Source of the DNA: Rhizomucor pusillus
Lineage: Eukaryota; Mucoromycota; Mucoromycetes; Mucorales; Lichtheimiaceae
DNA length: 64,000 bases
Direction of reading: 5' to 3'
NCBI GenBank assembly: GCA_900175165.2
Contig: FWWN02000482.1
Coordinates: 1 to 64,000, forward strand
This document shows positions 41,480 through 62,600 of the stretch, piece by piece. The notes under the pieces are model-generated. The model searched no databases, was not told where the DNA came from, and saw nothing but the letters and a program-made list of their open reading frames with translations. Numbering within the stretch: position 1 is the stretch's first letter; every line of letters begins with the position of its first letter. Made by a program: the position numbers and the translations under genes.

Positions 41480-44006
41480 TCAAGAATGGTGATGCAAGTT
41501 TAACGCTGAGCGTAAATGGGCGAGCTCCTGAATTGTCAGTTGTCCCGGAGCAGCGGCGCTCGGCAACGTCGCGTGCGTGGCAGGAGTGAGAAAATAGTTT
41601 GCAACACGCGAAAACCTGCCGTACTCTCCCATGTTGATGAGGATAATTTCCTTGCTATGTTCGGGATCGACGCGTCGCCGAAACTGTTCGAGCTCAATGT
41701 TGTCCACAAACGACTGTGCGTACCCGACCAGCTTCACGACGGTGCTCTTGTTGTTCTTACTGGTGACACTCGCAGCGCGCTCGTAGATGGATTGCATTTG
41801 CTGGCTAGACCACGGGTAGAGTCGGTCCGGGTCGTGGAACGATGCAATCCAGCGACTCTGATGATTAACACTTGCAAGCGCGTCGAGTTGCTGTGGAGAT
41901 ATCGTAGTAAATTCGACGTCAACGTAGTCGCATGCCCAGCGTTGCGCCCAGTACAGTAACTCCATATATTCTTTGACTAGTGAGGCATCAAATTTGCCAG
42001 CTTGCGGGATGGTACGCACGGTGAAAATGACGGGGAGGTTGAATAGTCGGCTCCGCAAATGCGCCAGCTGCTCGCCAGTTGTTGCTATCCAGGAGACATT
42101 AGGTTTCATCTCCAGCAAGTCGACGCGCAGCTCAATGGCATCGGCGCCTTCGATCCATTGCTGGAGGAGGAACGGCGGAAGAGAAGAGTAGTCGGGGATC
42201 GTAGGTGTCACAAAGCACGAAGCCTTTTCCAAAGTTACTTGTTGATGAGTAGAACCGATACCCAGCACCTTTTCAAGAAACGCCAACGCTGCTTGCTCAG
42301 ATGAGGACGAGAGCACAACGTACTCGTACCATTCCAATGCAGGATCGAGCGAGGTCGCACCAGCTTGAGATGTAAACGATATCATCCGAAGAGTGCCCTG
42401 ACCAGCTTGCAGGATGGCTTGGGCGCGCTCTAGGTCATCCATCACAGCCACTTGATTGCATCTTTCAGAAATCTCCTCCACCCAGTAGCACTGTCTAAGC
42501 GGGTCCCGGAGCGCGGCTGGAAGAAAGGCGTTGGTGATCCACTCGAAGCATTGTTTATCCGAAGCAACAAGGACGAGAGATCGTACGGCGCAGGGAAATT
42601 TAAGGCTACTACTAGCAATAGGCGTAGTAGGGGCGTTGTTTGTTGTTGTTGTTGAAAAGTGGCGATGGAGAACTTGCAGAATGACAGCATCTTGGACGGC
42701 GGTTGGCTGGTTTTCGTATGTGGCGCCGATGCAGGAGGACAAGAGCACAATTCTCTTTTGAGTACCCATATTTTTCTTGTCAACCTTCATGACTCGCATC
42801 AAGTCCTCGACAGAGACCCGATCCCGGATGGTTGCACAGTCTGTCGGCAATCCATAGCTGGCAATGCAATTCTTGAGTCTGTCAACGACGCTGGGTTCAC
42901 AGCAGCCGAGTTCTACAGCGATCTCAGCCTCCAGGATCATACCGATAGCCACACATTCGCCGTGGAGCCACTCTGGGGCTAGAATCGCTTCAATGGCATG
43001 CCCGAGCGAGTGGCCAAAGTTCAAAAGACCCCGCAGCCCGCCTTCTCGCTCGTCACTGCTGACAACATGCGCCTTGACTCGCACTGAAGCCAGGATGGCT
43101 TGCATCAGAATGTCCTCATCACCTGGTTGACACACACACACAATGGATCCGTTATTTCTTCCGTTCACTTGTTTTGCCAACAAGCAATCAATTACTGTAC
43201 TTGCCCTGATTGCCCTGTGTGGTGACTGCTGTTGCTTCCTGGATTTCTACTCGGTTTTGCTCGAGTCTCGAGAAGTCACTCTGGTTCCAAATCGCCGCTG
43301 TCTGTAATAATTATTTGGGGGGAGGAAAGAGAGACAAACAATGAGTTACCAAATAAAGCAGTGCTGATGGAGCTGGGTCCGGGACAATTTGGGAGAGTGT
43401 GAAAAAAGTTACCTTGATGACTTCAGCCATTCCATTTGCGAATTCGCGTTTGGGGAGTGTCTGCAACGTGGCGAGGTCCATGTATATTCTATGCGGTTGC
43501 CAGAACGATCCTATAAGGTTTTTTCCTTGAGGAGTATCAACGGCCGTTTTCCCCCCAATACTCGAATCGACCATGGCGAGCAACGTGGTCGGGATCTGGA
43601 CAACGGGTATTCCGCGCATAAACGTGGCAGCTACGAACCCGACAAGGTCCCCGATCACTCCGCCTCCCACTGCAAGGAGGCATGTGTCTCGAGTGCATGC
43701 TTCGGTGAGCATGTAGTCTTCTAGGTCCTGCTTGACTTGGCGTGACTTTGAGAGCTCTCCCGGCGGCAGGATGCGGACGAGCAAGCGCTGCTTGCTTTCG
43801 ATCATTTTGCTCTTCAGGGCCTCGACCAGAGGCTCCAAGTGAAGTCGGGCTAAATGAGCGTCGGTGACAATGACATAATTGGAAACGGAAACGTTGGCCA
43901 AAACGTCGGAAGCAATGTGTTGTGTAAGGTTGTATCCTAGATGGATCATGTCCGGCTTGTTGAGCACCGACACCCTGACCAATTTGCTGCTGCTATCCGT
44001 ATTCAT
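41480..44006 (-). CDS. Bifunctional AROM-like protein: 3-dehydroquinate synthase + type I dehydroquinase
   Basis: Exons 44006-43413, 43301-43205 and 43122-41480 give 777 residues. Residues 1-385 are a complete dehydroquinate synthase: NAD loop GGGVIGD (114-120), [20 protein letters not shown], and probable zinc ligands E195, H272 and H284. Residues 529-775 are a type I dehydroquinase with E634, H660 (ASFHD), Schiff-base K694 (VVKLVG), MGEYGRFSR and APGQ all present. Fungal AROM (about 1580 residues) has DHQS-EPSPS-SK-DHQase-SDH. Here EPSPS and SDH are absent and the middle ~145 residues hold no shikimate-kinase P-loop. So the protein should make dehydroquinate and dehydrate it, two consecutive steps, or act as a regulator as the AROM-derived QUTA/QUTR proteins do. 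The second intron has a GC donor. It is divergent from the double-psi barrel gene. Confidence 0.88.
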
Positions 44007-44283
44007 AATATTACAACGTCGCACAAGAAGCAGAATAAAAGAAAAGACAAGCGCAAACTCATTTATTGAATAAGCTTCTTTTTTAAAGGAACCGGTCCAT
44101 TTTCCTCCCCCCCAACTTACTGGCCTGGGCTGGAGTGTATATAAATACGACCGACTGACTTGACAGTGCGCCTCCTCAGTACATAACACTTGCATACATA
44201 TACACAGAAGAGCTAGCCTCTCTTGGTCAATTCTACATTAACGCATTCACCCTTCTATATTTTTACTGTTTCACATTGCACCC
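44007..44283. promoter_or_regulatory. Divergent promoter, AROM-like / double-psi barrel gene
   Basis: 277 bp separate the two divergent start codons. A TATATAAATA box at 44138-44147 faces the rightward gene, about 137 bp before its ATG. A pyrimidine-rich stretch follows at about 44210-44280. Confidence 0.6.
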
Positions 44284-44727
44284 ATGTCTGCCACCCGCCG
44301 CTCTTTGATCCTGGTGATCTCCCTACTGCTTCTTTCTTGCTTGTTGTTGGTCAATGCAGCTCCAATCCAACTGGTCGAGTTTTCAAACACTGCTGAATCA
44401 ACATCAAAAACCTTGGAGAAACGCGCTTACTCTGGCGATGGTACTTGGTACACACCCGGGCTCGGTTCCTGCGGCTGGGACAACAGCGAATCTCAATTAG
44501 TAGCTGCGCTGAACGCGGACCAGATGGGAAACGGTGGCAATCCAAACAAGAACCCGAAATGCGGCAAGAAAGCTAAGGTTACCTACAAGGGCAAGTCTGT
44601 TACCGTCAAGATTGTCGATACTTGTCCGACATGCAGCCACGGCTCTTTAGATCTAAGTCCGGCTGCGTTCAAGCGTCTCGCACCATTGTCAGTGGGCCGC
44701 ATCCCCATCAAGTTTAGCTTTGTGTAA
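44284..44727 (+). CDS. Secreted RlpA-like double-psi beta-barrel protein (expansin-like)
   Basis: Intronless gene of 147 residues. An Arg-bearing N-terminus and a long hydrophobic stretch (LILVISLLLLSCLLLVNA) form a signal peptide. A propeptide ends at EKR, a Kex2-type site, just before the mature start AYSGDGTWYTPG. The mature domain is the double-psi barrel of RlpA, barwin and expansin proteins: GLGSCGWDNSESQLVAAL, NPKCGKKAKV, VTVKIVDTCPTCSHGSLDLS and AAFKRLAPLSVGRI. These contain the conserved Cys pairs and the Asp of the HFD-like catalytic position. Such small fungal proteins are wall-associated and loosen or bind polysaccharide; no carbohydrate-binding domain is attached. Enzymatic activity is uncertain. 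Confidence 0.88.
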   Translation: MSATRRSLILVISLLLLSCLLLVNAAPIQLVEFSNTAESTSKTLEKRAYSGDGTWYTPGLGSCGWDNSESQLVAALNADQMGNGGNPNKNPKCGKKAKVTYKGKSVTVKIVDTCPTCSHGSLDLSPAAFKRLAPLSVGRIPIKFSFV

Positions 44728-45308: not shown

Positions 45309-48300
45309 TTAGCAGCAGCAACGCTTGCCAAGCTTTTTGTGTTTGCGTCTTCGTTCGTCTAATTCAAGATGTCGGGCGGTAGATACAACGTTGGGGAAAT
45401 ACCATTGATTGACAAACGCGACGGCGTAGCGGGGTAAGAATGCAATGATCGTAACAAGGATCAGCGTCATCCAGAAGGAAAGGTCAGAGAATACCATGAA
45501 TCCCATGCCATAGATATCAACGCTTCTAAAGAGGCTGTAAATGACAACGAACACGAATGTAAACACCACACCGAAGGCGACAAAGAAGATCTGGAACCAG
45601 GTCCAATACCAGGTATTGAACCCTGGTACAATGTTCGCCAGCAGAACCACTGCAAGTGCCACCGCTGTCGAGAATTCAAGGTTCGATGTTGGCAGGCCGT
45701 TCGGGTGTGGATCCTTGCTGTAGTATACAAAGTAGTATCCAAAGTAAAGAACAAGAGACTGCCACGCTGCATCCAGACAATACAGGCAGTACAACTTGCG
45801 GGTGTATAAAAGATGATGGGTGCCAACTTCGTAGGTCTGTGGAAACCGTTTCAGGAAGGGCGCAGTGATATCTTGATCGGAGCAGCCGAGCACGACAACC
45901 GGTGCGACGGTGAAAATAACATTGTACAGCTGGTGGAGCGAGTAGTCGTAAAACAGGCCGCCCGAGAATCGACTGTATATCTGGAACCACAGTGGCGGGA
46001 GGATAAACAAAAGATTCTTGAAAAAGAAGTTGAGAATCATTTCTGAAGTGCGTCGATAATTCCAGTGACCTTGCACAAGCAAGAGTTTCTGAAGAAATCT
46101 GAATTGGCCTATAGCATAGTCGGATGCCATCGATGCTTGCACACCTTCTTGGCCTGCAATGCCAACACCGATATTGGCAGACTGGATCATGCTCACATCG
46201 TTCGCACCATCGCCGACTGCTAACGTCACAGCACCGACGCCGTCCTTGACCATCTCAACCACCAGCGCCTTTTGCAATGGACTCACTCGGCAGCACACAA
46301 CGCTCTTGCACAAAAGAGCAAGTTGTAGTAATGCTTGCTTTCTCTCTGGTGTCTCGAACAAGTAGGTCAGCGCCGCGCCTTCGATAATCAGCGCATTTTC
46401 CGGCCCGTCTGGTTGTTTGTTCATGGCTGCGGTGATATTCTGTATCTCTTGCACCAAGTCTACCTCACCCGAAGAGGCTTCAGGTCCACGAAGTGTCCAT
46501 ATCTGCATGCCCGCTTCTAAGACGCTGCTTGCGTATCCAATATTGATGGCCGTTTCGAGCTTATCGCCCGTAAGCACCCAGACTTTGATGCCAGCGTGTC
46601 GCAAATCCTCGATACACTGCGGTACACCTTCCTGCAATTTATCTTCGATAGCCGTTGCGCCCAAAAGGACAAGTTGGCGCTCCATTTCGTCTTGCAGTGC
46701 TTCCATCTTTTCCGTACGGTTCTCTGCAGCGGTGCTTGCTTCGTCGTAGCGCTTGGCCCAATCCTGGTACTCCATAGGTTCTAGCTTCTTGCATGCAAGC
46801 ACAAGCGTGCGGAGGCCATCGTTTGAAAATACATCAATGTCATCCTGTGTCTGCTGCACGAGTTCTTTTGACTGCGTATCACTACCGAGGCGTTCCAAAA
46901 TCACATTATCCGCGCCTTTGCAGTAAAGTACAATGTCGTTCCAAGGCTCAGGTCTTTTCACAATCACGCTCATCCGTTTGCGTGTTGAGTTAAATTCGAG
47001 AACATTGAGAAGCTCAAACTCATACTCGACGCCCAAAAAATCGACAAACAATTGTTTGCCTCGACGCGCTACGAACGCGAACCCGACATCGCGCGCTGCA
47101 CTCACAAGTGCTGCCTCGTCAGGAGATTCGGCTTTGTATACAATCTGCGTGTCGACCGTCATGTCCACGATATCCGGACGTTCAACGTTTGCAATCGATT
47201 GAAACTCTTCACCACGTGTGCTGGCACGACTGGCACGACTGGCGTGTCGAGTAACTCTGCGCTCCCCTTTCACTTTTCGTTTGAACCTTCTACCTCGGTT
47301 CTTCATTGCTTCACGGAACCCGGTACCAGTTTTCTCGTTTGTTGCTGACGCTTTGTCGTCTTCGATAACCTGAGGTTGCAATTCATCCAAATTATCTCCT
47401 CCATCTTCATCGTCATCTTCGATAATTGCTTTGCCGTTCCTGTCAATCTTTTCAACAATCACAGTGTGACACAATGCAAGGTTCATGAAAAATTCCTGCA
47501 CCTTGTCCCTGTGCGTAGTTTCTTTGTCTTCTTTAGATGTCGAATCAGATGGATGCAGGTCCCACAAGACGGCAGGGTCGGCGAACGAAAGTCGTTTTGG
47601 ATCCAAGCTGCTGTATTTCGGCGTAAAGAGAGACGTCAATGCACGTTTGTATTCTTCGAAAATGCCTGCACGTCGTTCCTGGAAACTCGAATCGTCACCT
47701 GCGTCTCGCTTCTCTGCCATGTCTTCTTCTGCTGTTGCTACCGGTCCCAGCGACGCTGATTCCTTGGCTCCCAATAGATTGATTTGCTGGGACGCGTCTT
47801 CTTCCACTGCAGACGCGGCTGCCGCTACCGCTGGTGGTGGTCCCGTCGTCATCGTCGACGCAGCTCTCTGCTCCTGTCTTTCTCGGCGCAGTCTGGCACC
47901 ACGTGCACCCTCTGACTCTGGTGCAAACCCATTGTTGCCGTACCGTTTTCCGTCAATCGAGCATTCACGGAATTCCATGATATTTCGCGTCAACGTGCCT
48001 GTCTTGTCAGAAAACAGATACTCCACTTGACCCAAATCATCCGATAAATTCCACTAGAGATATTCCCTCCCGTAAATAAATGGACCTGGCTTAACGATGA
48101 TGGCAAAAGGTCTGGGAAACGACTTACAGATTTCGGTACGCAGGGAGTATCTGACGCTTCATCGTACATGTCAATATCACTCCAAATAAAATAAGCCTAA
48201 TTGCTCAAGTTGGTCAATAAACCTTGTAGGTTTTTACCCCTGAATCTACAACGAAGGTGATAATACTCACATGGAACGTCTTTACAAATTCTATGGAAAC

Positions 48301-49767
48301 ATAGAGCGAGATGGGGATGATATTCTGAAAGATAATCAAGCTCGACCTAATATATACACGGTAAATTAATGAACCCTTCAAGAAAAAGAATAGCTTATGT
48401 TACCAAAAGTTCATGAATCCAACGAATGCCGGCGAATCGGTCTGACGCGAGTACAGACTCGTTCCAGCATCAGCGTCGTCCTCGGCTTTCATGACACCGG
48501 CGAGGATTGCACATACAAGGCAGAGTAGTACGAGAACAACGAAAGCAATGATAATCTCCTGATTCATTTGCTTCTCGATGCGGCTGCGTTTGCTCGGGGT
48601 CTTATTTGAGTTGAGAATGATTTTGGATTCAGGCCCGGTGTAGAGCACAAGCGCGACTGCCCAGTGTGTGTTCCTGACAACGTGGCCGCGTAGAACAATG
48701 TTGTCAATATTGATTGGTATCTTTTTGCGTTCTTTCCAGCCGCCGTTTCCTTCGTGATGCTTCTCCAGCAGCACCATGGTACCTTCAAACGAATACAAGT
48801 CCGGCGTGGGTGCTGGCGCATCAATGTACAAGTGAACATCGTTGAGACACTCTGTGCCTGACTGGATATGGCTCAGCTCAGGCACACAGTATCGAGGTTT
48901 CAGGTTCGTCTCGCCATCGAGATCCTTTGTCTCGACAAAGCACACACCCGTCGGGTCGGAGCTCGAGAGCAGCACAGCGTCGGCAGGACAGCTCTCACCG
49001 TTCCGCAGCAGAATAAAGTCGCCCACTCGTACATCCATCGACACCGAGCGTCCAAAGTATCCCTTCTTCTTTTCCGAATCTTCATCTTCTGATGATGGTG
49101 GCGGTTGTTGGTTCTTTTTGGGAGCGGGATAATTTACATTGTCGTATCCAAGGAGGGTGTAAGTGATGGTGCTGTTGTATCTCGCATCGACCTTGTGGCG
49201 CTGGTAGTCTTCAAAGCCATCCTTGACGGCCGAAATGGCGACAACGACGCAGATAGGCAGGACTGTGAGCGCTGGATTCTTTATACCAAAATAGGGTATC
49301 AGCTGCAAGATGGCCTGCGCAAGAAAGTACATGTTTGCAGCACGTCTAAACTGCTCAAACAAGTTTTTCGGCACAAACGTCAGCGGCGTATACTTGGACG
49401 TGCGTACTCTGTTCGAGACAAACCGCCGTTTCGGCGATCCGTCTGCATTCAGCTCGTAACTCGGCAGGGGAAGATTGACAAATACTCGGCGGCCGCCATC
49501 TGTTATTCGTCGTAATTTCACCCTGGAGGTGTCTTCTTGTTCTTGTTGTTCGCTGTGCCGATGAGGCTGAGGCGTTGGAGGCTGGGAAAGGGCGAGTGAG
49601 TCGGCAGGCGGCGTAGAGGAGGAGGAGGAGGAGGTGTTGTTGTTGTTGCTGTTGATGGAGAGTGCAGCCATATCGATTTCTTCATAGTTGTCGTCCCTAC
49701 GTAAGGGAGCGTCGTAGTGCGACCGAGCAGTTTTCCGTCGTCGCGAGAGTGTCTTCAGGATATCCAT
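45309..49767 (-). CDS. DNF1: P4-type phospholipid flippase (Dnf-like)
   Basis: ATP-driven translocase of aminophospholipids from the outer to the cytosolic leaflet, acting with a Cdc50/Lem3-type subunit. Exons 49767-48404, 48346-48271, 48196-48128 and 48053-45309 give 1417 residues. Motifs in order are: [19 protein letters not shown], the actuator loop DLDGETNLK (TGES replaced by DGET as in P4 enzymes), [15 protein letters not shown] (helix 4 PISL), DKTGTLT with phospho-Asp 519, [43 protein letters not shown], and a C-terminal PhoLip domain. The N-terminus is Ser/Asn/Gln-rich. The extreme C-terminus is KRCCC. The first intron uses the TATATATTAG acceptor; the nearer CTTTCAG would create a stop. 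Assignment to the Dnf rather than the Drs2 group is tentative. Confidence 0.92.
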
Positions 49768-50668
49768 GTATTCATATGCATTTGGAAAAAAGAGAAGCAG
49801 AAAATGCTTCTAAATGTAGCACCAGAATGGTTGCTTTACGATCCGCTTGCTGCCTTCGCCCTGAAGTGGGGTGAATCCTCATCCAATCATTACATCGTCG
49901 GCCCGGCTGAAGCATCTCAAAAGGGGCTTGTTGCGTGAATACAGATGGATGCGATGGTCCATCGCCTCGTCGTATGTGCATCTCCTGCTATCAATGGACA
50001 GAGAATGGCAATACCGCTTTTATCGAATTGGTTTTCTTTTTCGCCCATTTTCTTATTCTTTGTCTCAGTCTGTTTCCTGATTTGCGGATTCGGGTAACAA
50101 AAGAGTAAACCTAAAAAGCCTCCACAAGAAAATAGATCACAGCCAGCGGTAAATCGCTCTAGTCATCTGAGGTTGCGCACGCCAAGACTGACACAGCTGA
50201 TGGCGGCGGCGCACTACAGTGCTAGTGCTTTTGGTGCAAACAAAAAAGTGCTTTCACATACAGGATTTAAAATGTTCAGATCAACTTTGGATAGCAACAA
50301 TATAGCACGATGTACCTGGGTGCATCCTAATTATCCGCCACTTTGTGCTGATTTGTTTTTTGAACAATAAATACGCTGCATTGCAGGACCGTATCGAGAC
50401 TCTTATTACTACTTGAACCCAAACTACTCACTACCGCTTACAGTGATCTATACCGCTGTTCAAAATCGTCTCTGGCACATATGCACAGTATCAAGAATAG
50501 GGAGGGGTTTTCTAAGGGTAGATCTGCAAACATTACTGCCTTATGCTGAGAGTACAGTAACAGGTTCAAAACCTTACAGGCATATATCCTTACAATAATT
50601 GGATTCGTAACAAAGGGATTTAACAGCTGCGCGCGTGGCACCTTTATTTATATGTATTTATCTTTATA
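49768..50668. other. Intergenic between flippase and dynein genes
   Basis: About 900 bp with the flippase promoter and the dynein 3' flank. No gene, RNA or repeat was recognised. Confidence 0.5.
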
Positions 50669-53600
50669 TTAAAAAGAAATGACGACTGCAACGGCTCTCT
50701 GAGGAATACGCTCCTTGTCCTCAGGATCAGCAGGTACGTGGATAGTGAAGAGCAAGTCTGATCTATCGGCGTTCAGGTAAACTGGCAAGGGAATCTTGTT
50801 GGTATCGCTCTGCATATCGCTCTTAATCCATCGCAAGTTGCAATCGGGCATCTTGGTCGATGGTTCTGACGTCAAGTGCACTTGCTTGTCTTCCCAGCGT
50901 CCGCCTTCCATGCGTAAGCCACGTACAGAGTAACCTTCGCTCTCGTTGACGCCAATGTCGACTTCCAATACAAGCTCTTCAAGCGACCATTGGTTGCGCT
51001 GAGCAGTTGCTTGCCGAGTAGCGGTAACATACGCCTCTGGACTGAACAATCCACCAAGCCAAACTTGGATGTTCTCGTATCGATCCTCTTTGGCAATATT
51101 CTCCACTTGTTCCAGGCGCGACTTGAGATCGGCTATCCACACATTCAATGATATGTTCTTTGGAACCTTGTAACGCTTCCAATGTTCAGGAATCAATCCC
51201 TTGGTCAGCCAGCTCATCAATTGACGCAAGTGGTTGGTCTGTTTCAATTCGCCGGAGCACACTTTCTGTAAGGAGCCGAGATCTTCGCGTATCGTACGCA
51301 AGAGACTGCGAGCAATCTGGTTTTCACGCTCAAAGAAGCGGAATAGAGGATCCATGACGTTGTTGGCATTGTCTCGTTTGATGATAGAAAGACTTTCGGG
51401 AAGCAATTCAAGCCATCCGCTGATGTTGGCGCTAAGCGCCCGCATCCAAGCCGGTTGTTGGCTCGATGCACTCTGTTTGGCCGTATCTTGCGTGTATGCA
51501 ACCTCGTCATCGTCGCTGATACTCTTCATCTTTCGCACCTTGGAAAGCATCGTCTCGCCCTTGAGAGTCAACAGCACACGCTCGGCGTTGCCAGGCAGAC
51601 CAAGCCAGGTAGGTGGTTCGCGGTCGGGAAGCTTGCTGACCCACTCTAAGAACTGCTCTATCTTTGTACCGTCTGGTACAACAACAGGCGCGTCGTTGTC
51701 GCCTGTCTTCTTGACAATTTCAAAGTCCAAGTCATAGCAGTGGTGTGTAAACAATGTGTTTACAAATGAATCCAATAAGCGCTGATCGAATTCATTATCG
51801 ATGCGACCACCATAAATAGACTGCTTGAGAAGTGATCGAATAGCATCCCATGGGATCTTTTCGGGCGATATGTTGGCTCTTCCACCTGCTGCGGCGTCAA
51901 GCCACTTGTCGATGGTATTGAATGCACTGTCTTGGTCGGAATCATTGAACTCGTACGTCTTGGTCCATCCAAGAGGTACATAGCGGAGACGTTCTTGGAC
52001 GACGGCGTGAAGCCATGCAAGCATAAAGTACAGGCGCACACGTTCGCTGGGTCCCTTTTGAAGACGTGATTGAGGGATGCTACGCAGCGATTCTTGCAAG
52101 TTGGCCTTGATACCTGGTGGTGGTTCGAACATCAAAACACGAGACATACGCAGCAAGTTGACGGGGACCTTTGGATTGGTCTCCATTGTCAAGAATAGGC
52201 GGAAGCTGCGATGAGGTTTCATGCTGTGTAACTTTTTTTCTAGCTGACCAAGCCATGCAGGAGCAAGGTGTACGTTCTTAAGCATGACCCAGTTGCCAGT
52301 CTTGATAGCAGAAGAAATAGCTTGGTCTGCAAGAGTAAAACCTTCTGCAGAACCCATAGCGACCGACGTACAGCGCACATTGGTCTCAGCGACCAGGTTG
52401 TCAACACGATAACTGGCATCGTAACCAGGAATAGAGCAAAGCGCCAAGGGTGTACTGCTGCTAACTTCATCGTTAACCAATTGTTGCAAGTTAAGCTCAT
52501 CCGCATTGACAAAGTCGGAACCAAAGATTTCGGACGCAAACATGGTTGCAGCAGGCAGTAATCGATCAGGTCGGAAACATTTCACTAGAAGCATTCTGCG
52601 CAGAGCATCCACGACATCTACAGATATATTTGTTTAGCACCATACCACCTACTTCTAATTTGTAATGTAGAAAAAAATGGAGAACTTACTGTTCCTTCCA
52701 GCATTGTCCCAGCATGCAGGTACCGCTGTTTCCGCTTGAGGATGGTCGACGAATGCACGCCAGTCATCCACGTTCTGATTAATGTGGTCAACCATAGACT
52801 TGAAGCAGTTCAGCGTCGCAAATTCCTTGATACGCTGTGCCGTTTCATCTGCAATAAAGTCAGGGAGACCCATGCTGGCAGTTGTCGCTGTTGATCCAGG
52901 GACAACATCGCCGCCGCTAAGCAAGAAGTCATACTCAGCTTCGTCCACGCTTTCGTTCGTTCCACGTATCTGAATTTGACACATCAAAACAGCAAGCATA
53001 ATATGATCTTCGTGCAACAAAGTGCGGGAAGTTCGCTTGTAAGTAACATGGAACAAATCGCGCGATAATATTTGAAGACGTTCGATTGGATCGGTGATTC
53101 CTTTGAGGTTCGGGTTAGCATGCAACACGTACTCGAAGATTTCATAGAAGAAATCAAGTGAGAATTGATAGAAGTGGTGAATGAGATTGAGTTGCTCCAT
53201 AACAAAGAAGATAGAGCTGCATGCATGAGCCAATGGACTGTAGACAGCGGTTGTTTGCTCGACTTCCTGCATGATCGTGTTTGTTTCATCCACCTTCCGA
53301 GTGACGTCTGCAGCCTCTTTCTTGAGCGTCTCCAGTGTCTCAATGACCTTGTCATCGTCCAAAATATTGCCCTTGCTTTCATTGAGTGCTTGTAGCAAGG
53401 ACTTTTCAAGATGGCGAAGTTTGAGCTGGAATTCGCCCTGCAACTTGATCAAATCTGTTCTGCGTTGATCCACGTCGGGTCGTTCAGCCTTGAGCACCTT
53501 GTTCAAACATTGGCTTTGAAGACTGCTGCGAGTAACCGTAAAGTTGACAAATGTCACGCGCGAGCAGATATCTGGTGGGAAGCTGACAGATGGATCACGA

Positions 53601-56600
53601 GTTGAAAGGAAGAGCGTGAACGAAGGCGAAAAGTCGATATCCTGGTTGCCCAGACGAATGAGTACACGACCGCCAGTTCGACGCAGCTCCTTGTTCAATA
53701 CAGGGTTGAGGATAGGATCCAAGTGCTCGACATCTTGAATAAGAATCGGATTACCGAAACGCAAAGCACTTTCGAGATTCTTAATGAACGAATCATCCAA
53801 GAAACTGGTAACGGTGATCTTGCGATCCTTATATTCGTTCACCAAAAAGTTGGTTGCTTGACCGGATGGATCAATAACAAGTGGATAACGATCGAAACGC
53901 TTAAGCATGATGGCGTTTTCGATACACAAGTCGTCGGCAGGCAACGAGTTTTCTTGCCATGACAAACGGTCGTCCGCGGTCGAGAGATACTCTGTAAGGG
54001 ACATGTCCTGCTTGAATTGGATTCCGGCTGCAATCAAGTGTCCAGTCCACTTTTGAAGCAAAAGCTCACGATATTGCTGGTCAAAGTAACCACCGTAGGC
54101 AAGGAAGGCTGCAGATAGCAAAACGTCGCCCACAATTGTACCCATTTGGCTTTCGAAGGCTTGACTTGCTGTCTCCCAACGAACCTTTTCTGAAGACAAG
54201 CTGCTAAGCAGTGTCAAGCTGCGATCAACTTTAGACTTCACGCGGTCCATTTCAGCCTTGATAAGTTGCGTTTCACCAACAAGTGCGGCGTATTCTTCCT
54301 TGTAACGACCGATACTGGCTTCCAAGTCGACAATCATCTGTTCGATTTCTGCAGCTTGTTTCTTGGTGTCTTCAGCACTTTGTTCAAGACTATCGACTTC
54401 CTCACGCAAAGGTCCAACACGATCCAGAATATCAGAGTACTGTACTTGAGCAGCAACCCATTTCACCAAGGGACCGCAAGCCTTGGAAGCACGGTTGACA
54501 GTCTCATACTCGAAAGCTGGGTTATTCAAGTAGTTTCGACGCATGAAATCGCGAAGCTGCTTGGTCATTTGCGTCTCGGTGTTGTAGTTGACAATGCTGG
54601 TAATAAAGTCATCACGTCGAATAATACTTTGTACAGTCTTCCAGCTTTCGATCTTGTGGCCCAACATAGTGCAAACAGACTCCATAGCCAATTTGACTGC
54701 TTCGGGAGGATTGCCCATGGCACGCACTTCGGTGAGGTGTTGTCTTTTGATATTGCTGACACTCTTTTGAGCTTCAAGCACAGCTGGCTCTGCCTTGGCC
54801 AGGTCGTCCAACACAATCGAACGTCGTTCTTGGATTTCCTACATAGCAAACAATGAATGAATATCCAGATCACTGTCATTTAGTGTTATTTAGAATCTTT
54901 ACCTTGTTCTGGATTTCAAGAGCTTCCTGAATCTGAATAGAAGCAGCTTTCTTTTGTTCAGCTTCCTTTTCGTCGGCCAACATTTGGTTGATCTTATCAT
55001 TGGCTTGAGCATTTTTGACTTCAAGCTGATTCTTCTTGATAGCCAAACTCTTGCGGAGCTCCTCCACCTTGACGACAGTATCCTTGAGTTTCTCAAGACC
55101 GACATTCAAGTGACGCTGTTGTTCTTCGAGGTCTTCGCGCTTCTCATTGTACAATCGTACATAGTGAGAGATGAAATCCAAAAAGTGGCGAGGTGTCACA
55201 TAGTTATGTCGTCCTTGACGCTTGCTTAATTTAGCATTGATCTCATACAGAGACTGGTGCACAAACACGAGCGCATTGACCACTGCCTCTCGATGCGTGG
55301 GAGGGATGGGAAGATTGCGGTAGGCAATAGGGAAGTTGAGCGGTGCCGCATATGTTGGGACATCGAGATCCAATGTCTTTGTAAACTCCATACCAACTTG
55401 ATAGAAGGCTTGATCAGGCCAGTCTCCAAACCAATCGAGCACACAACGGTTGAACAAGGCAGGAGAGGTAGCTGCTCGCGAAGCCAAACCACCCTCTGGT
55501 GGATTCATGGTGAAAACAACGTGTAGGTTTCTCATGACCTGCTGCGTGAACCACTTGTACAATTCTTCGTTCGAGTCCAGCATGAGACCTTCTCTCTGAG
55601 CACCTTCCTTGCAAGCAGTCATCAAAGAAGCATATTCGTCGCCTTCAAAAAGACCAGGCACTTCAGCGTTAGCCAAAAGCGTGTTCATGCGTTCCAAGAA
55701 ACCAGAATCGAGAACGTTGGACTCATCCATGATAAAGCAAATCTTTTCTCCTTTGCAGCCTGCTCGACGCAGAACGCCACGAAGATCGTCATCGAAATCG
55801 GCGCCAGTGTATTTGTTGTGTACCTTGACTTGGAATACACTGAGACCGTTCATCCAGGCAACAAAGCGGGAAAGCGTTGTCTTGCCGGAACCGCTAACAC
55901 CGATAAGCAGCAAATGACCTTGAGGTTGTCTAAAGACTCGATCGATTCGGAGAACATGCTCCAGTACATCGTTGAACAAGACCAATGCGACATCCAATTC
56001 TTCTTCGTAAAAGACCTTGAGACGAGCCTTTGCATAGTCCCGCAGTTGTTCGCGTCCAACAGGGATGTAGTGCTTGGATAGCCAGTTAGAGAACAGGATA
56101 GGTCGCTCAAGAGCTTCTTCCTTGTTAAGAGCAGGGAAGTGCTTCATGGCGATAGAGTCAATCATTTCATCGGTCCATTGGCGTTCTTCTTCGTCTACAA
56201 GACGATCTTGGAATAGACGCAAGGCTTCGTGAGCCCAGATACGGACCAGACCCTCAACAGTCAAAGTCTCCAAAGGCTTGATAGCTTCAAAGATACCACG
56301 GACCCAACGAGTCAATTCACGAGGAGAGTAAATGTAATGTGCCTGAATATCGGGTGTGAACCGCTTCTGAGATGCCAGATACAGCTCCACCATGGCAGCC
56401 GTCAAAGGCTCGGCGTAACCGCGCAAGTTCGGGACAACCTTGAGCATGGCGCGAGTGAAAGTACCGTAAATCTGCATAAGCGACGTCTGACCAGCATAGT
56501 CCACCATGACCAGAGGTGCATGGCGCAAGAAACGGTGTGAAAGGGGAACACGACCTGGATCGGTAGGTGGGTTACAAGCACCAACAAATTGGATACGTTC

Positions 56601-59600
56601 CAAAGTGACCCAGGACTTGTCGCTGGCTCGCCAGAATCCATTGTATTCCACAAGTTGGCGCAAGAACGAAATGACACGCTGTGTATTGTACTTGTCGGTT
56701 GCAGGCAAGTTGATTTCATCACAGAAAATAACAAGCCAACGTCCAATCATTGTAGGTGACAAAATAACACCGTTGGGAGTCTTTCGGTACTCGCAGTGTT
56801 GCTCGAATGTCTTCAAGATTAATTCAGGCGTAGTTGCACTGGAGAAGTTGAGACCGACGACCTCCATGTCTGGAAGTTTGCGAAGTGCACTGAACAAGGT
56901 CATTGTTTTACCTGAACCAGGTGGACCGCAAAGAATGAGAGGTTTGTGCTCAGACAGCCACGAGTAAAGGACTTCTTCGTGGCGAATAGTATCGACAGTG
57001 GGAATGATCATATCTGCGTCGGATACCTTGTGCGTCTCGATTTCTACAACTGGCACCTTCGATTCCCAAGGCACCCACTGGCCAGTATTGACAGCGATGT
57101 CATAATCAATGATACTTGTATTGTTGCCAAGTGGTGGGAGCTCATATGTTGTGACGCCACGGATGTAATCACCAAGGACAGTACGGAGATCAAGTTTTGC
57201 ATCACCAGAGAAACTCCAGATAATGGAGTAAATGATGCGCTTGGTGATATAACCTTCCAAGTGATCGCCTGCCATGGGGAAATCAGGGTGCTGAGCATTG
57301 TATTCAAGCACGTTCCGTACGGTCTTGTTGAGGAGCGAGAAAAATGTTGAGAGTACTCGCATGCGAGTAAAGTCCATAATGTGCTCCAATGTTCCTGCAT
57401 AGTCGAGAGCCTTGGCAACCAAACCGCTTTCATCGGACAAATCGGGAGCCATGATATCTGCGATTTCACGCTGCGTGGCGAGATTAGGTGATACGGATGT
57501 CAATTCTTCGCTCTCGGCGAGGCGACGGCTTGATGGACCTTCCTCTTCAATTTCATCCATAGGTACATTGCGCAAAGTCTCCAGATAGTTGGAAAAGATC
57601 ATAGGCAAGGTGATAACATCCTCGCTGAACCAGACCATACCACAGCGAGAGACTGTAGCGAGAGTAGCATACTTGAGGGTCTCTACTTCAAACATGATGC
57701 GGACATTTGGTGGGAGATTGAGACGTTCACCGTTAGGCAAAGTCAACAGTCTGTTATCGTCGAGCACAGAGTTCAAGTTTTCAACCCATTCAGGATCGAC
57801 ATCGCCGTCAAAAATAATCCAATGTCTCTTTTGACTTTCACCACGAACATTGTCCACGATCTTGCGAAGAATATGTGTGAAGAGACCATCCGTCCATTCT
57901 CTGGTAGTTGCATCCAATGTACCGTACAATGCATCTTTGGGAATAGCCTTTGGATCGATTGTGTAGGCAACACCTTCGACGCCTTCGACGCGTTCCAAAG
58001 CAGTCAGCAATGTCTTCCAAGCTGTCGATTTGCCAGATCCAGAAGGACCAACCATCATAAGACCATGATGGATATTTTGAATTTGATATAGCTGGATAAC
58101 CTTTTCCATCCAGGCATCACCGCTGACAAGGCGGCGTTCGGCGCAAACTTTCTTGAGCTCTTCCTTGAGACGATCAAGATCAACAGGTGCATATTTAACA
58201 CCTGGGAAGACATCAGCGAGCAAGCTAAGAAAAATAATGGATCAGATTCGAGCCTAGAACGATTCTCTTAGAAATTGCTAGCGCTTACCTGGTCAACAAA
58301 GGAATATCGTCAGCTACAAGCTTGGGTACCATGGTTTCTCGAATACTATTCAAACATGGATAAGTGATATTATCAAAGGGCGATTGTATTGAGTCATTCG
58401 GGTATTTACCTGGAAATAAGCAATTGTTGTTCTGGTACAGATTCAGAAATGCTGCTGTACTTGGACTTGTCTTCTTTGCCTTCCTCGATTTCCTTTCGCA
58501 AAGTTGCTAGACGCTCACGCTTCAAATTACCGGCGCTAACGAGCACACTCTTGAGTGCACGAAGACCGAAGTCATAGTGAGATTGAGGAGAAAGCTGCTC
58601 CGCGCACAAATTGAAGAGCGGCACGACTTTTGATGCCAAAGTTTCGGCGGTGCGGAAACCTTGAGAATACAACATGACTTGAGCAATGAGTTCTCTGTCG
58701 GGCTTTGTCATGGCGATGCTTCGGAACAGTTTCTTCAAGTTATCAGGCAAGTTGGAACGGCCGGCATAGCCAGGGTTCATAGTGATGAAGATACCGGTAT
58801 CTGTGTTGACCTTGACGTTACGTCCAACAAGCTCAATTTCGTGGTTGGGGTTAGTCATGGCTTCCTTGAGACCCAATTGAATAGTCTGCACTTGTTGCGA
58901 GACAGCAGAAAGGATACGTTCCTCCAAACGGTTAAATTCATCAAAACAGCCCCAAGCACCGACTTGGCAAAGACCAATGAAGATACGACCCATGGCCTGG
59001 AAATCAAATGTCTCATCACAGCAGAAGACAAGGACAAAGCGACCGAGCTGCACACCGAGAGCCTTGACGGATTCGGTCTTACCGGTACCTGCAGGACCGA
59101 AGGGCGAACCACCGAGACGTTGCTCCAAAGCTTGGGTCAACGTGAGGTAACAACGGTCAGTAAGAGGCGTTTGCACAAGGCGGTCAGGGACGCCGAGGTA
59201 CTCGTACCCATAATAGAATTGAGCATTGGCCATATTGATGGTCAATCTATGGATGGGATTTTCAACGCTGGCATTAAAGTAGAACCGCATCTGGTAAAGC
59301 CAGTTGAAATCCTTGGGGGAGGTGACGTTGTTAGTGAGCAGCTGACGGGTAACATCACGCTGGTGGACGAGCTCTGTAACCAAATGTTCGCACTTGCGTC
59401 GCTTGATTGCAGATAGATCGAGCAAGACGGCATCGGCAAGGATATTCAAATTACGTTCTACGAGCTGAATAGCTGTTTGCAGGGGAGCGGTATCTCGATC
59501 AGCACTTTCGTTAATCGTATTCAGGGCCTTATCCACCGACTGTGTCCAGATGATCTGAGCTGCAAGCACAACTAGTTGAGCTGGGTAGCGGTCAATCCAT

Positions 59601-62600
59601 TCCATAAAGGCGGATGAGTCCATTTCTTCTGCATTGTAAATCGCTTCCAGCTCGCCGACTGCATCGCTAAGCAAGAGAGCCAAAGACGAGTGCATCTCTT
59701 TTTCCAATAGCGTCAACCAATCGTTGATCTTGGGATTGTCCTTAATAGACACAGGAGTCTTGAAGACTACTTCTTCGCCTTCCTTCGAGGCCATACCCAT
59801 AATGGCATTTTGATCTTCGTTGAGCAAGATGGTAGCAATACCGGCAAACATCTTCTTGAAATGCTTCTGAATACGCAAGATATCTTTGCTGTTACCAATG
59901 ATTTCGAGGAGGTCTTCATCACCAACAAAGTAGAAACGAGGGAATGATGCACGCTCTCGTTCAAGATATTCACCCAAGGCCTTTTGGATTTTGCTCAGCA
60001 AGTCTGCAAGGCGTTCAAGCGATTTTTGAATGTTTGGAATGTTCAGCACATCCATAACGAATGGCGACTTGTAAACTTTTTTCATGACAGCCAGGAATTC
60101 GGTGTTGATGCTTTGGAAACGGGAAGTTTCAACAGGTAACAAGTGCTTGATATCCACGCTGCCGCTAAAGATACCCTCGAGATACACCCATTGACGCTGG
60201 ACATCAATCCACACGTCGAACAAGACATGCACGCGGTTAAGCTTATCTTCCCAAGATGCAGCATCTTCTTCAAAGACTTTGTAGTATGGGGACAGCTTCA
60301 TGGCAGTCAACGAGTTGATATGCTCGCTTGATTTGTTGAAAAGATCGTCCCATCCACGGATAAGACGGCATTTGTTCTGATAGTTTACCAAGTCGAGCAC
60401 ATAGTTTGCCCAGGTTTCCTTAACCTGCTTCAAGAATTCTTCCAGCGCCATTTCACCTTGAGCTTGCAAGATAACATCACGCACAAGTTGCTCGTTGCGC
60501 TTCAGGTCCAAGTCCCAAAGATGACCGATGGTCATTTCTGATAAGGTGAATCGGCCTTCCACCTTCAAAGTCTTGAAGATCTGACGCCAGTGACGTTCTC
60601 GAAGAGCTTCCGACTTCAGATCAGCAACAAGTGGGTTAACTCGCAGCAGCTGTCGCAAGGTTTCCTGAACGTATTCGTATGCTGCATACTGGCGCATGCG
60701 GTTCGGCATTTCCTTTGTCGAGTTGACAAGCTCGTCCAAAAGCTGACGCACTTTACGAGGAACGACAGAGGACCAGGGAGTATCACGGATCTCGTAAAGA
60801 GACTGCCAGACTTTAGCGAGAGCTGTCCAGACAGACTTGAGATCACGCAGTTCTTCCAAGACAGGATCGAGACGAGCTTCAGAAGTCTGTTCGAGATCCA
60901 GAGCTTCCTTTGCGCGGCAAACCATATCATACTCTTCTTTCAATCGAGTAACACGGCCCTCGAAGATACTGAGTGTATTGGTAGCAATGTCGGGTTTAAT
61001 GTCGCCTTGCACAGGTTTAGACTTTTCCCATTCTGCACAGATATCACGGATCTTCTGCTCCACGACCTTGTCTTCAGCAACAATCTTCATTTGCAATCCA
61101 GCTACAGAAATATATTTGTAAAAAGTGCTTCCTATAGATACACATCATACTTACCAATCTGGTCTTGGATAGCATTGTTCTTGCGGCTCAAAATCTCATT
61201 GAAAGCACTCCATTCACCATCGACCTGATCAACATACACCCAGTCATTGGGGAATTGGAAGCGCTGCCGTTCCAAGGTCTTTTGTCCTTGACGGAATAGT
61301 TCAACATCTTGGCTCCATTTAGCGACCTTGCGCTTGAGATCCTGCACAAAGGTGATGAAGGTTACGGCCTCGCCGGTCGAGTTACTTTCAATAGATTGCT
61401 GCTCCAATTCATATCGAGCTTTGGAGACTGATACATGGAAATCACGCATGGATGTACCGAGCATGCTGCCGAACTTGTTCAAGATTTCTCGTTGCCATTG
61501 ATCGTATTTTTGGTTCACCTTGCTTTGCACTTGCTCATAGTCGATAACGAGAGGGCCAAAAGACTGTTCGGTTTCAGAGTTATCAAAAGTGCTGCGTGCC
61601 TTTTTAATTTCTAGCAGAATCTGCTGCCACTTTGATAGATCATCACCAAGAATATTAAAGACGTGATTGGACTCAAGGTCCCACAATGACTGGTATTGCA
61701 GCCAGATGTTGACATATTCCGATACTTGGGTGATCTTGTCTTCGATAATTTGATACGCATTCTTAAGCGAGCCGTCGCCCATGCGTGTCAAAAGGCTAGC
61801 GTAGCTCTTTTCTTCCAATGGATTGTCACGAACGCTGAGACCGCCTTCGTATCTAGAGCTCTGAATGCGAGGCAAGTGACAAACAGTAGATAGCCAGTCA
61901 TGCAGCTGAGACCACCAGCTAGCCCTAGCTTGCTCAATTGGTGGATCGAGATACATGACTTGGTTTCGGATGCGAATTTCATGAATGAGCGTCTGCAAAG
62001 TGGGTTTCACCTCTGGTGACTTTGAGATTGCGACAGGCTTTTCTTCTACGACGACATTCTCACGAGAATTCGCCTTGCGCTTTCGACGGCTCTTGGAGAT
62101 TGTAACTTCTGGAATAATTGCTTCCTCGTCGATACCTTGGAAACTGTTTGTCCAGGCCTTGATGGCTTGTTGGAGACGACTGATAAGCACGGCTTCAATG
62201 CGTTTGTCGAGACCAGCGACCCATTGATCTAAGTTGGAGTAGTTCTCCAAGTTGAGTCTGTCAATCTGATAGAAACAATTTGTTAGCAAAAATCTTGTAT
62301 ACTACAAACTTCCATAGTTACCAATTTCTGGATGCGTCCGAGGGCATCTTCAAAGCGGTCGACTTGGTAAGGGCATGCGTTCATTTCTTCGATGCTCTTG
62401 TTGATCTCGTCATAGTAGCCGATAAGCGCATCTACTTTATCTTGGAATACAGAGACTACATTTGCAAATTCTCGAACAAACATGACATGTCTGTTCTCAC
62501 GAGCATCCAAAGGTGTGCCGGTTAAGTACGATAATGGTCGGTGGTGGGCATCGTATGTGTTAACGAAGTAATCCCATCGAAGGTTGATACCTGAAAGCTT

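What the first reader, a model, noticed from the sequence alone, without database searches (positions are those of the whole stretch)
41480..44006. Shortened AROM: dehydroquinate synthase fused directly to type I dehydroquinase
The sequence shows an intact DHQS (E195, H272 and H284 as probable zinc ligands) and an intact DHQase (E634, H660, K694) in one 777-residue frame. EPSPS, a shikimate-kinase P-loop and SDH are absent. Known fungal AROM carries all five activities. Known AROM-derived fragments QUTA (N-terminal part) and QUTR (C-terminal part) are regulators with a different split. A protein that keeps steps 2 and 3 but loses the EPSPS block between them would be an unusual reduction. It could be a dedicated dehydroshikimate producer (quinate or protocatechuate metabolism) or a catalytic decoy.
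Basis: partly seen in the sequence, partly recalled or inferred. Interest (0 to 1): 0.75.

Follow-up and report, generated by a model that had tools for sequence, protein, structure and literature searches.

The report
Two-enzyme cut-down copy of AROM
This fungus keeps the normal five-enzyme AROM protein and, beside it, a shortened relative in which only the second- and third-step enzymes look intact, with a wasted remnant probably derived from shikimate kinase between them; the same short protein occurs in many Mucorales moulds and in Umbelopsis, and its job is not known.

Summary
The gene is real. Three minus-strand exons (44006-43413, 43301-43205, 43122-41480) encode a 777-residue protein with dehydroquinate synthase (DHQS) and type I dehydroquinase (DHQase) domains and no recognisable EPSPS or shikimate dehydrogenase. 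It is not a direct fusion: about 146 residues lie between, most likely a degenerate shikimate kinase without P-loop or GGG motif. The genome also holds one complete AROM. The short protein occurs in 20 Mucorales species and two Umbelopsis rows. All DHQS and DHQase active-site residues that I name are unchanged in 21 of 21 Mucorales members. I read it as an AROM-derived bifunctional enzyme converting DAHP to dehydroquinate to dehydroshikimate, probably feeding the shikimate dehydrogenase of AROM, the only one found in the genome. A quinate or protocatechuate role is not supported here: no type II dehydroquinase, second shikimate/quinate dehydrogenase or intradiol dioxygenase was found, by searches that read exon by exon. 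A dead decoy is unlikely. Activity is untested. No description of the family was seen in nine literature searches.

The parts
43413..44006 (-). Exon 1: start codon and DHQS N-terminal domain (residues 1-198), ending after K198
43302..43412 (-). Intron 1, GT-AG, phase 0; same position and phase as intron 1 of the genome's full AROM
43205..43301 (-). Exon 2: start of the DHQS C-terminal domain (residues 199-230 and part of 231)
43123..43204 (-). Intron 2, GC-AG in the 777-aa model (alternative GT donor gives 780 aa), phase 1; phase matches AROM intron 2, position matches within about 3 residues in a gappy region
41480..43122 (-). Exon 3: rest of DHQS, middle segment, DHQase, stop
42221..42658 (-). 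Middle segment (about residues 386-531): probable degenerate shikimate kinase, no P-loop, no GGG motif
41516..42154 (-). Type I DHQase domain (residues 554-766) with H660 and K694

Best explanation
An AROM paralogue of Mucorales and Umbelopsis that has become a bifunctional enzyme. AROM was duplicated; one copy lost EPSPS and the C-terminal shikimate dehydrogenase, its shikimate kinase decayed (and is gone in Umbelopsis), while DHQS and DHQase stayed under strong selection. It would turn DAHP into 3-dehydroquinate and then 3-dehydroshikimate on one homodimeric chain and release dehydroshikimate. The likely sink is the shikimate dehydrogenase domain of the complete AROM, so the protein would add or separately control capacity at steps 2 and 3. 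Shown: gene structure by homology, domains, lack of EPSPS, SDH and P-loop, invariant active sites, presence in many Mucorales, coexistence with full AROM. Inferred: expression, catalytic activity, homodimer, kinase origin of the middle, direction of flux.
For: Active-site residues named in the full report are identical to AROM in 21 of 21 Mucorales members, and in both Umbelopsis members except E634 to D. Of columns strictly invariant in 31 AROMs, the window protein keeps 104 of 107 in DHQS and 40 of 47 in DHQase but 8 of 37 in the middle; all 21 family members keep 71, 29 and 0. Single full AROM in the genome with the only EPSPS, SK and SDH_N matches. Introns correspond to those of AROM. Architecture in 20 Mucorales species and two Umbelopsis rows. 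The middle aligns collinearly with AROM kinase in 6hqv. AROM's dimer centre is its DHQS and DHQase domains (PMC6851490, passages).
Against: No expression, activity or phenotype data. The family evolves faster than AROM (the 22 aligned relatives are 48-54% identical to it, against 72-81% for full-length named Mucorales AROM rows to the genome's AROM). It is listed in only 14 of 27 Mucorales/Umbelopsis genera that have an AROM row, so it is dispensable or missed in the rest. The kinase origin rests on a collinear fold match and a short profile match (probability 30); the middle modelled without DHQase has no Foldseek hit at E 0.001 or better. The tree does not place the duplication firmly. For C. 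albicans Aro1 the dimer is described as mediated by the DHQase domain, so the role of DHQS in dimers may vary.
Confidence: 0.68

Rival explanations
1. A regulator in the manner of the AROM-derived repressors QutR, GaaX and TanX: it binds dehydroquinate or another pathway metabolite and acts on a partner protein rather than as an enzyme.
For: AROM pieces have been recruited as regulators in Ascomycota (PMC10512348, passages). The paralogue evolves faster than AROM and carries a decayed middle domain.
Against: The working hypothesis for those repressors is a catalytically inactive protein, whereas here both active sites are invariant. Their homology is to the last three AROM domains, SK-DHQase-SDH; here SDH is absent and DHQS kept. 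No Zn2Cys6 domain was found in the 10 neighbouring frames scanned.
Confidence: 0.12
2. Dedicated dehydroshikimate supply for a side pathway (quinate, protocatechuate or gallate) rather than for aromatic amino acids.
For: Two consecutive steps kept and the next lost would stop at dehydroshikimate. A review notes gallic acid in culture of Phycomyces blakesleeanus, which has the paralogue (PMC9332510, passages).
Against: The same passage holds that there is no natural microbial pathway for direct conversion of dehydroshikimate to gallate. In this genome no type II DHQase, no second Shikimate_dh_N, no intradiol dioxygenase and no AP_endonuc_2-family match, the family of dehydroshikimate dehydratase as recalled. 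These searches read the genome exon by exon, their control genomes are prokaryotes, and saw no candidate at all, so small or intron-split genes can be missed. No pathway genes in the 20 frames scanned.
Confidence: 0.15
3. A decaying pseudogene or assembly artefact.
For: Middle region decayed; paralogue not listed in 13 of 27 genera with an AROM row.
Against: Open frames and splice sites, 22 other aligned proteins with the same two domains, invariant active sites, a separate database cluster of 25 member sequences at 99%.
Confidence: 0.03

Closest known systems
Fungal pentafunctional AROM (DHQS-EPSPS-SK-DHQase-SDH)
   Same: DHQS and DHQase domains in the same order with all named active-site residues; two corresponding introns; a kinase-like segment just before DHQase
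   Different: EPSPS and SDH absent; kinase without P-loop or GGG motif; 777 against 1607 residues; coexists with a full AROM in the same genome
AROM-derived repressors QutR, GaaX, TanX of Ascomycota
   Same: Shortened AROM derivative related through a DHQase domain
   Different: Those correspond to the last three domains (SK-DHQase-SDH) and are supposed to be catalytically inactive; this keeps DHQS and DHQase with intact active-site residues
Predicted proteins P0003-P0025 of Mucorales and Umbelopsis, named by their sources '3-dehydroquinate synthase', 'pentafunctional protein', 'Pentafunctional AROM polypeptide' or hypothetical
   Same: Same family and architecture
   Different: Umbelopsis members (660 aa) have only 25-27 residues in place of the middle segment
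Candida albicans Aro1 (PMC9074039, passages)
   Same: AROM with a reduced set of working domains
   Different: There the DHQase domain inside full Aro1 is dead and a separate type II enzyme replaces it; here the AROM of the genome has the DHQase residues and the extra copy keeps them too

Membership tests
Pentafunctional AROM | Five domains DHQS-EPSPS-SK-DHQase-SDH in one chain | tested here: not met
   No EPSPS, SKI or SDH match in the protein; in the genome these match only at C86
Pentafunctional AROM | Descent from AROM | tested here: met
   53.5% identity in DHQS and 43% in DHQase to the genome's AROM, corresponding introns, collinear fold match to 6hqv 867-1288
Pentafunctional AROM | Functional shikimate kinase with Walker A motif | tested here: not met
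   Walker A in 0 of 21 family members against 28 of 28 AROMs examined
3-dehydroquinate synthase | Zinc ligands and substrate-binding residues | tested here: met
   R131, D147, K153, N163, E195, K198, K247, R261, N265, H268, H272, H284, K353 in 21 of 21; roles recalled
Type I 3-dehydroquinase | Schiff-base lysine, catalytic histidine and arginines | tested here: met
   K694, H660, E561, R563, R600, R736, Q758 in 21 of 21; roles recalled, the histidine also
Both enzymes | Measured activity | not testable with these tools
   Needs expression and assay
AROM-derived repressor (QutR type) | SK-DHQase-SDH, the C-terminal part of AROM | tested here: not met
   DHQS present and SDH absent
AROM-derived repressor (QutR type) | Supposed loss of catalysis (working hypothesis in PMC10512348) | tested here: not met
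   All named residues kept; activity itself not tested
AROM-derived repressor (QutR type) | Adjacent Zn2Cys6 activator gene | tested here: inconclusive
   None in the 10 frames of 33-53 kb scanned or the 10, but these are unspliced frames; 15 of the 35 frames that do not belong to this gene were not scanned

The most novel reading that the evidence does not exclude
The short protein keeps exactly the two domains that form the homodimeric centre of AROM, so it may pair with full AROM chains, giving mixed dimers with extra DHQS and DHQase sites per EPSPS, SK and SDH, and so set the flux of the first AROM steps; the decayed kinase would serve as a structural spacer.
Probability: 0.12. Interest if true: 0.72.

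Novelty: new variant of a known kind. Interest (0 to 1): 0.45.

Why it matters
AROM is usually treated as one five-enzyme unit in fungi. A second copy, found across many Mucorales and in Umbelopsis, that keeps only steps 2 and 3 with intact active-site residues shows that AROM can be cut down to a two-enzyme core and kept for long, and it raises a direct question: why do these moulds need extra dehydroshikimate-making capacity? It also matters for annotation (some members are named pentafunctional) and for metabolic models of Mucorales, in which DHQS and DHQase would each have two sources.

Tried and rejected

The quick tree put the paralogues near the base of fungal AROM. Holding them with Mucorales and Umbelopsis AROM gave a likelihood 8.4 better than the quick tree (p-AU 0.655). 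The careful tree leaves the point open. P0012, P0014 and P0017 (close relatives) were left out of the trees, as were P0001, P0002, P0022, P0036 and P0041 (partial).

A sequence search of PDB chains with the middle plus DHQase matched only DHQase parts. No tRNA gene was found in the window.

No paper on this family was seen in the listings of nine searches (one search listed 20 of 222). Passages were read in six papers: PMC9394408, PMC10512348, PMC9074039, PMC6851490, PMC12610400, PMC9332510. The library misses most subscription journals.

Full report
Observation. On the minus strand of the window three exons (44006-43413, 43301-43205, 43122-41480) give a 777-residue protein. Intron 1 is GT-AG, phase 0. 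Intron 2 is GC-AG, phase 1, in this model; a GT donor nine bases downstream would give 780 residues. Pfam finds DHQ_synthase (79-190), DHQS_C (192-348) and DHquinase_I (554-766), and no EPSPS, shikimate kinase or shikimate dehydrogenase. Homologues align through both splice junctions.

The rest of the genome. The assembly (24.45 Mb, 353 contigs) has two matches each for DHQ_synthase and DHquinase_I: the window gene and contig C86. EPSP_synthase, SKI and Shikimate_dh_N match only at C86. C86 holds a complete AROM of 1607 residues in three exons. The first introns of the two genes lie after corresponding lysines (K198 and K206) in phase 0. The second introns share phase 1 and lie within about three residues of each other in a poorly alignable stretch. 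The window protein is 53.5% identical to this AROM over DHQS and 43% over DHQase.

A conserved family. A protein search returned the same domain set, without EPSPS, SKI or SDH, in P0003-P0025: 20 Mucorales species (of Lichtheimia, Dichotomocladium, Rhizopus, Gilbertella, Syncephalastrum, Helicostylum, Mucor, Choanephora, Blakeslea, Cokeromyces, Parasitella, Backusella, Sporodiniella, Mycotypha, Spinellus, Phycomyces), two Umbelopsis rows and a second, partial Parasitella row. There were further fragments, among them Thamnidium. A profile search with 23 members added no other named fungal group with this domain set, only the unnamed P0245. Both lists show only the best 120 of 3695 and 7831 matches. 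Of 27 Mucorales and Umbelopsis genera with an AROM row, 14 have the short protein and 13 are not listed with it; this counts rows in capped lists, not genomes. P0001, a cluster of 25 member sequences, is 99% identical over the exon-3 part, middle segment included, which speaks against mis-assembly.

Active sites. In an alignment of 21 Mucorales members (window included), two Umbelopsis members and 31 AROMs, the DHQS residues R131, D147, K153, N163, E195, K198, K247, R261, N265, H268, H272, H284 and K353 are the same in 21 of 21 Mucorales members and in the genome's AROM. So are the DHQase residues E561, R563, R600, D632, E634, H660, K694, R736 and Q758. Both Umbelopsis members have D for E634 and keep the rest. 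The roles are recalled from the literature on A. nidulans DHQS and bacterial DHQase. By that numbering the zinc ligands are E195, H268 and H284, not H272. Of the columns strictly invariant in the 31 AROMs, the window protein keeps 104 of 107 in DHQS, 40 of 47 in DHQase and 8 of 37 in the middle; all 21 family members keep 71, 29 and 0. Some AROM-invariant positions did change in most of the family, for example W to F beside the catalytic histidine (19 of 21 F, 2 of 21 Y) and Q to R or K at 733 (20 of 21). Substitution of the catalytic histidine is part of what killed the DHQase domain of Candida albicans Aro1 (PMC9074039, passages), so its presence in every member is informative.

Origin. The paralogues form one group (bootstrap 90, SH-aLRT 45; 18 Mucorales and two Umbelopsis rows against 34 AROMs, two of them oomycete) on a long branch. 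Joining them with Mucorales and Umbelopsis AROM is not rejected and has a better likelihood than the quick tree. The corresponding introns fit a duplication of AROM. Its date is open.

Function. Intact active sites in a fast-evolving protein whose middle domain has decayed point to an enzyme for DAHP to dehydroquinate to dehydroshikimate. The crystal structure of AROM puts homodimeric DHQS and DHQase at its centre (PMC6851490, passages), so the short protein corresponds to the dimer core of AROM; for C. albicans Aro1 the dimer is described as mediated by DHQase. The genome search found no type II DHQase, no second Shikimate_dh_N, no intradiol dioxygenase and no AP_endonuc_2-family match. These searches read genes exon by exon, saw no candidate at all, and the control genomes are prokaryotes, so the absences are not firm. 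The only dehydroshikimate-using enzyme I could find is AROM itself. Eight DAHP synthase matches on three contigs suggest three genes. Neighbouring frames encode an amino acid transporter, a double-psi beta-barrel protein, a P4-ATPase and dynein heavy chain, with no pathway cluster in the 20 frames scanned.

Known relatives. AROM-derived repressors of Aspergillus correspond to SK-DHQase-SDH and are supposed to be catalytically inactive (PMC10512348, passages). The present family has another split and keeps its catalytic residues. A survey of 390 fungal EPSPS proteins (PMC9394408, passages) started from proteins with EPSPS and so would not include it. No description was seen in the listings of nine searches.

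Noticed in passing
P0035, P0058, P0061, P0064, P0097 (proteins): In chytrids (Chytriomyces, Obelidium, Rhizoclosmatium, Siphonaria) AROM appears in two complementary pieces, DHQS-EPSPS of about 890-900 aa and, in one Chytriomyces row, DHQS-SK-DHQase-SDH of 1232 aa, each with all 13 checked DHQS residues. Could be gene-model errors or a true split.
   Followed up: partly
P0245: An unnamed 655-aa DHQS-DHQase protein without SKI or EPSPS match and with altered residues at the places of K353 (I) and E634 (Q).
   Followed up: partly
window 44007-44283: Short divergent intergenic stretch (277 bases between start codons) shared with a double-psi beta-barrel gene at 44284-44727 on the plus strand.
   Followed up: no
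G000 C132:36449-37471, C52:112365-113382, C4:80692-81769: Eight DAHP synthase matches on three contigs, probably three genes.
   Followed up: no
window 50672-61144 and 45312-49809, minus strand: Dynein heavy chain and a P4-type phospholipid ATPase, ordinary genes split by introns.
   Followed up: no
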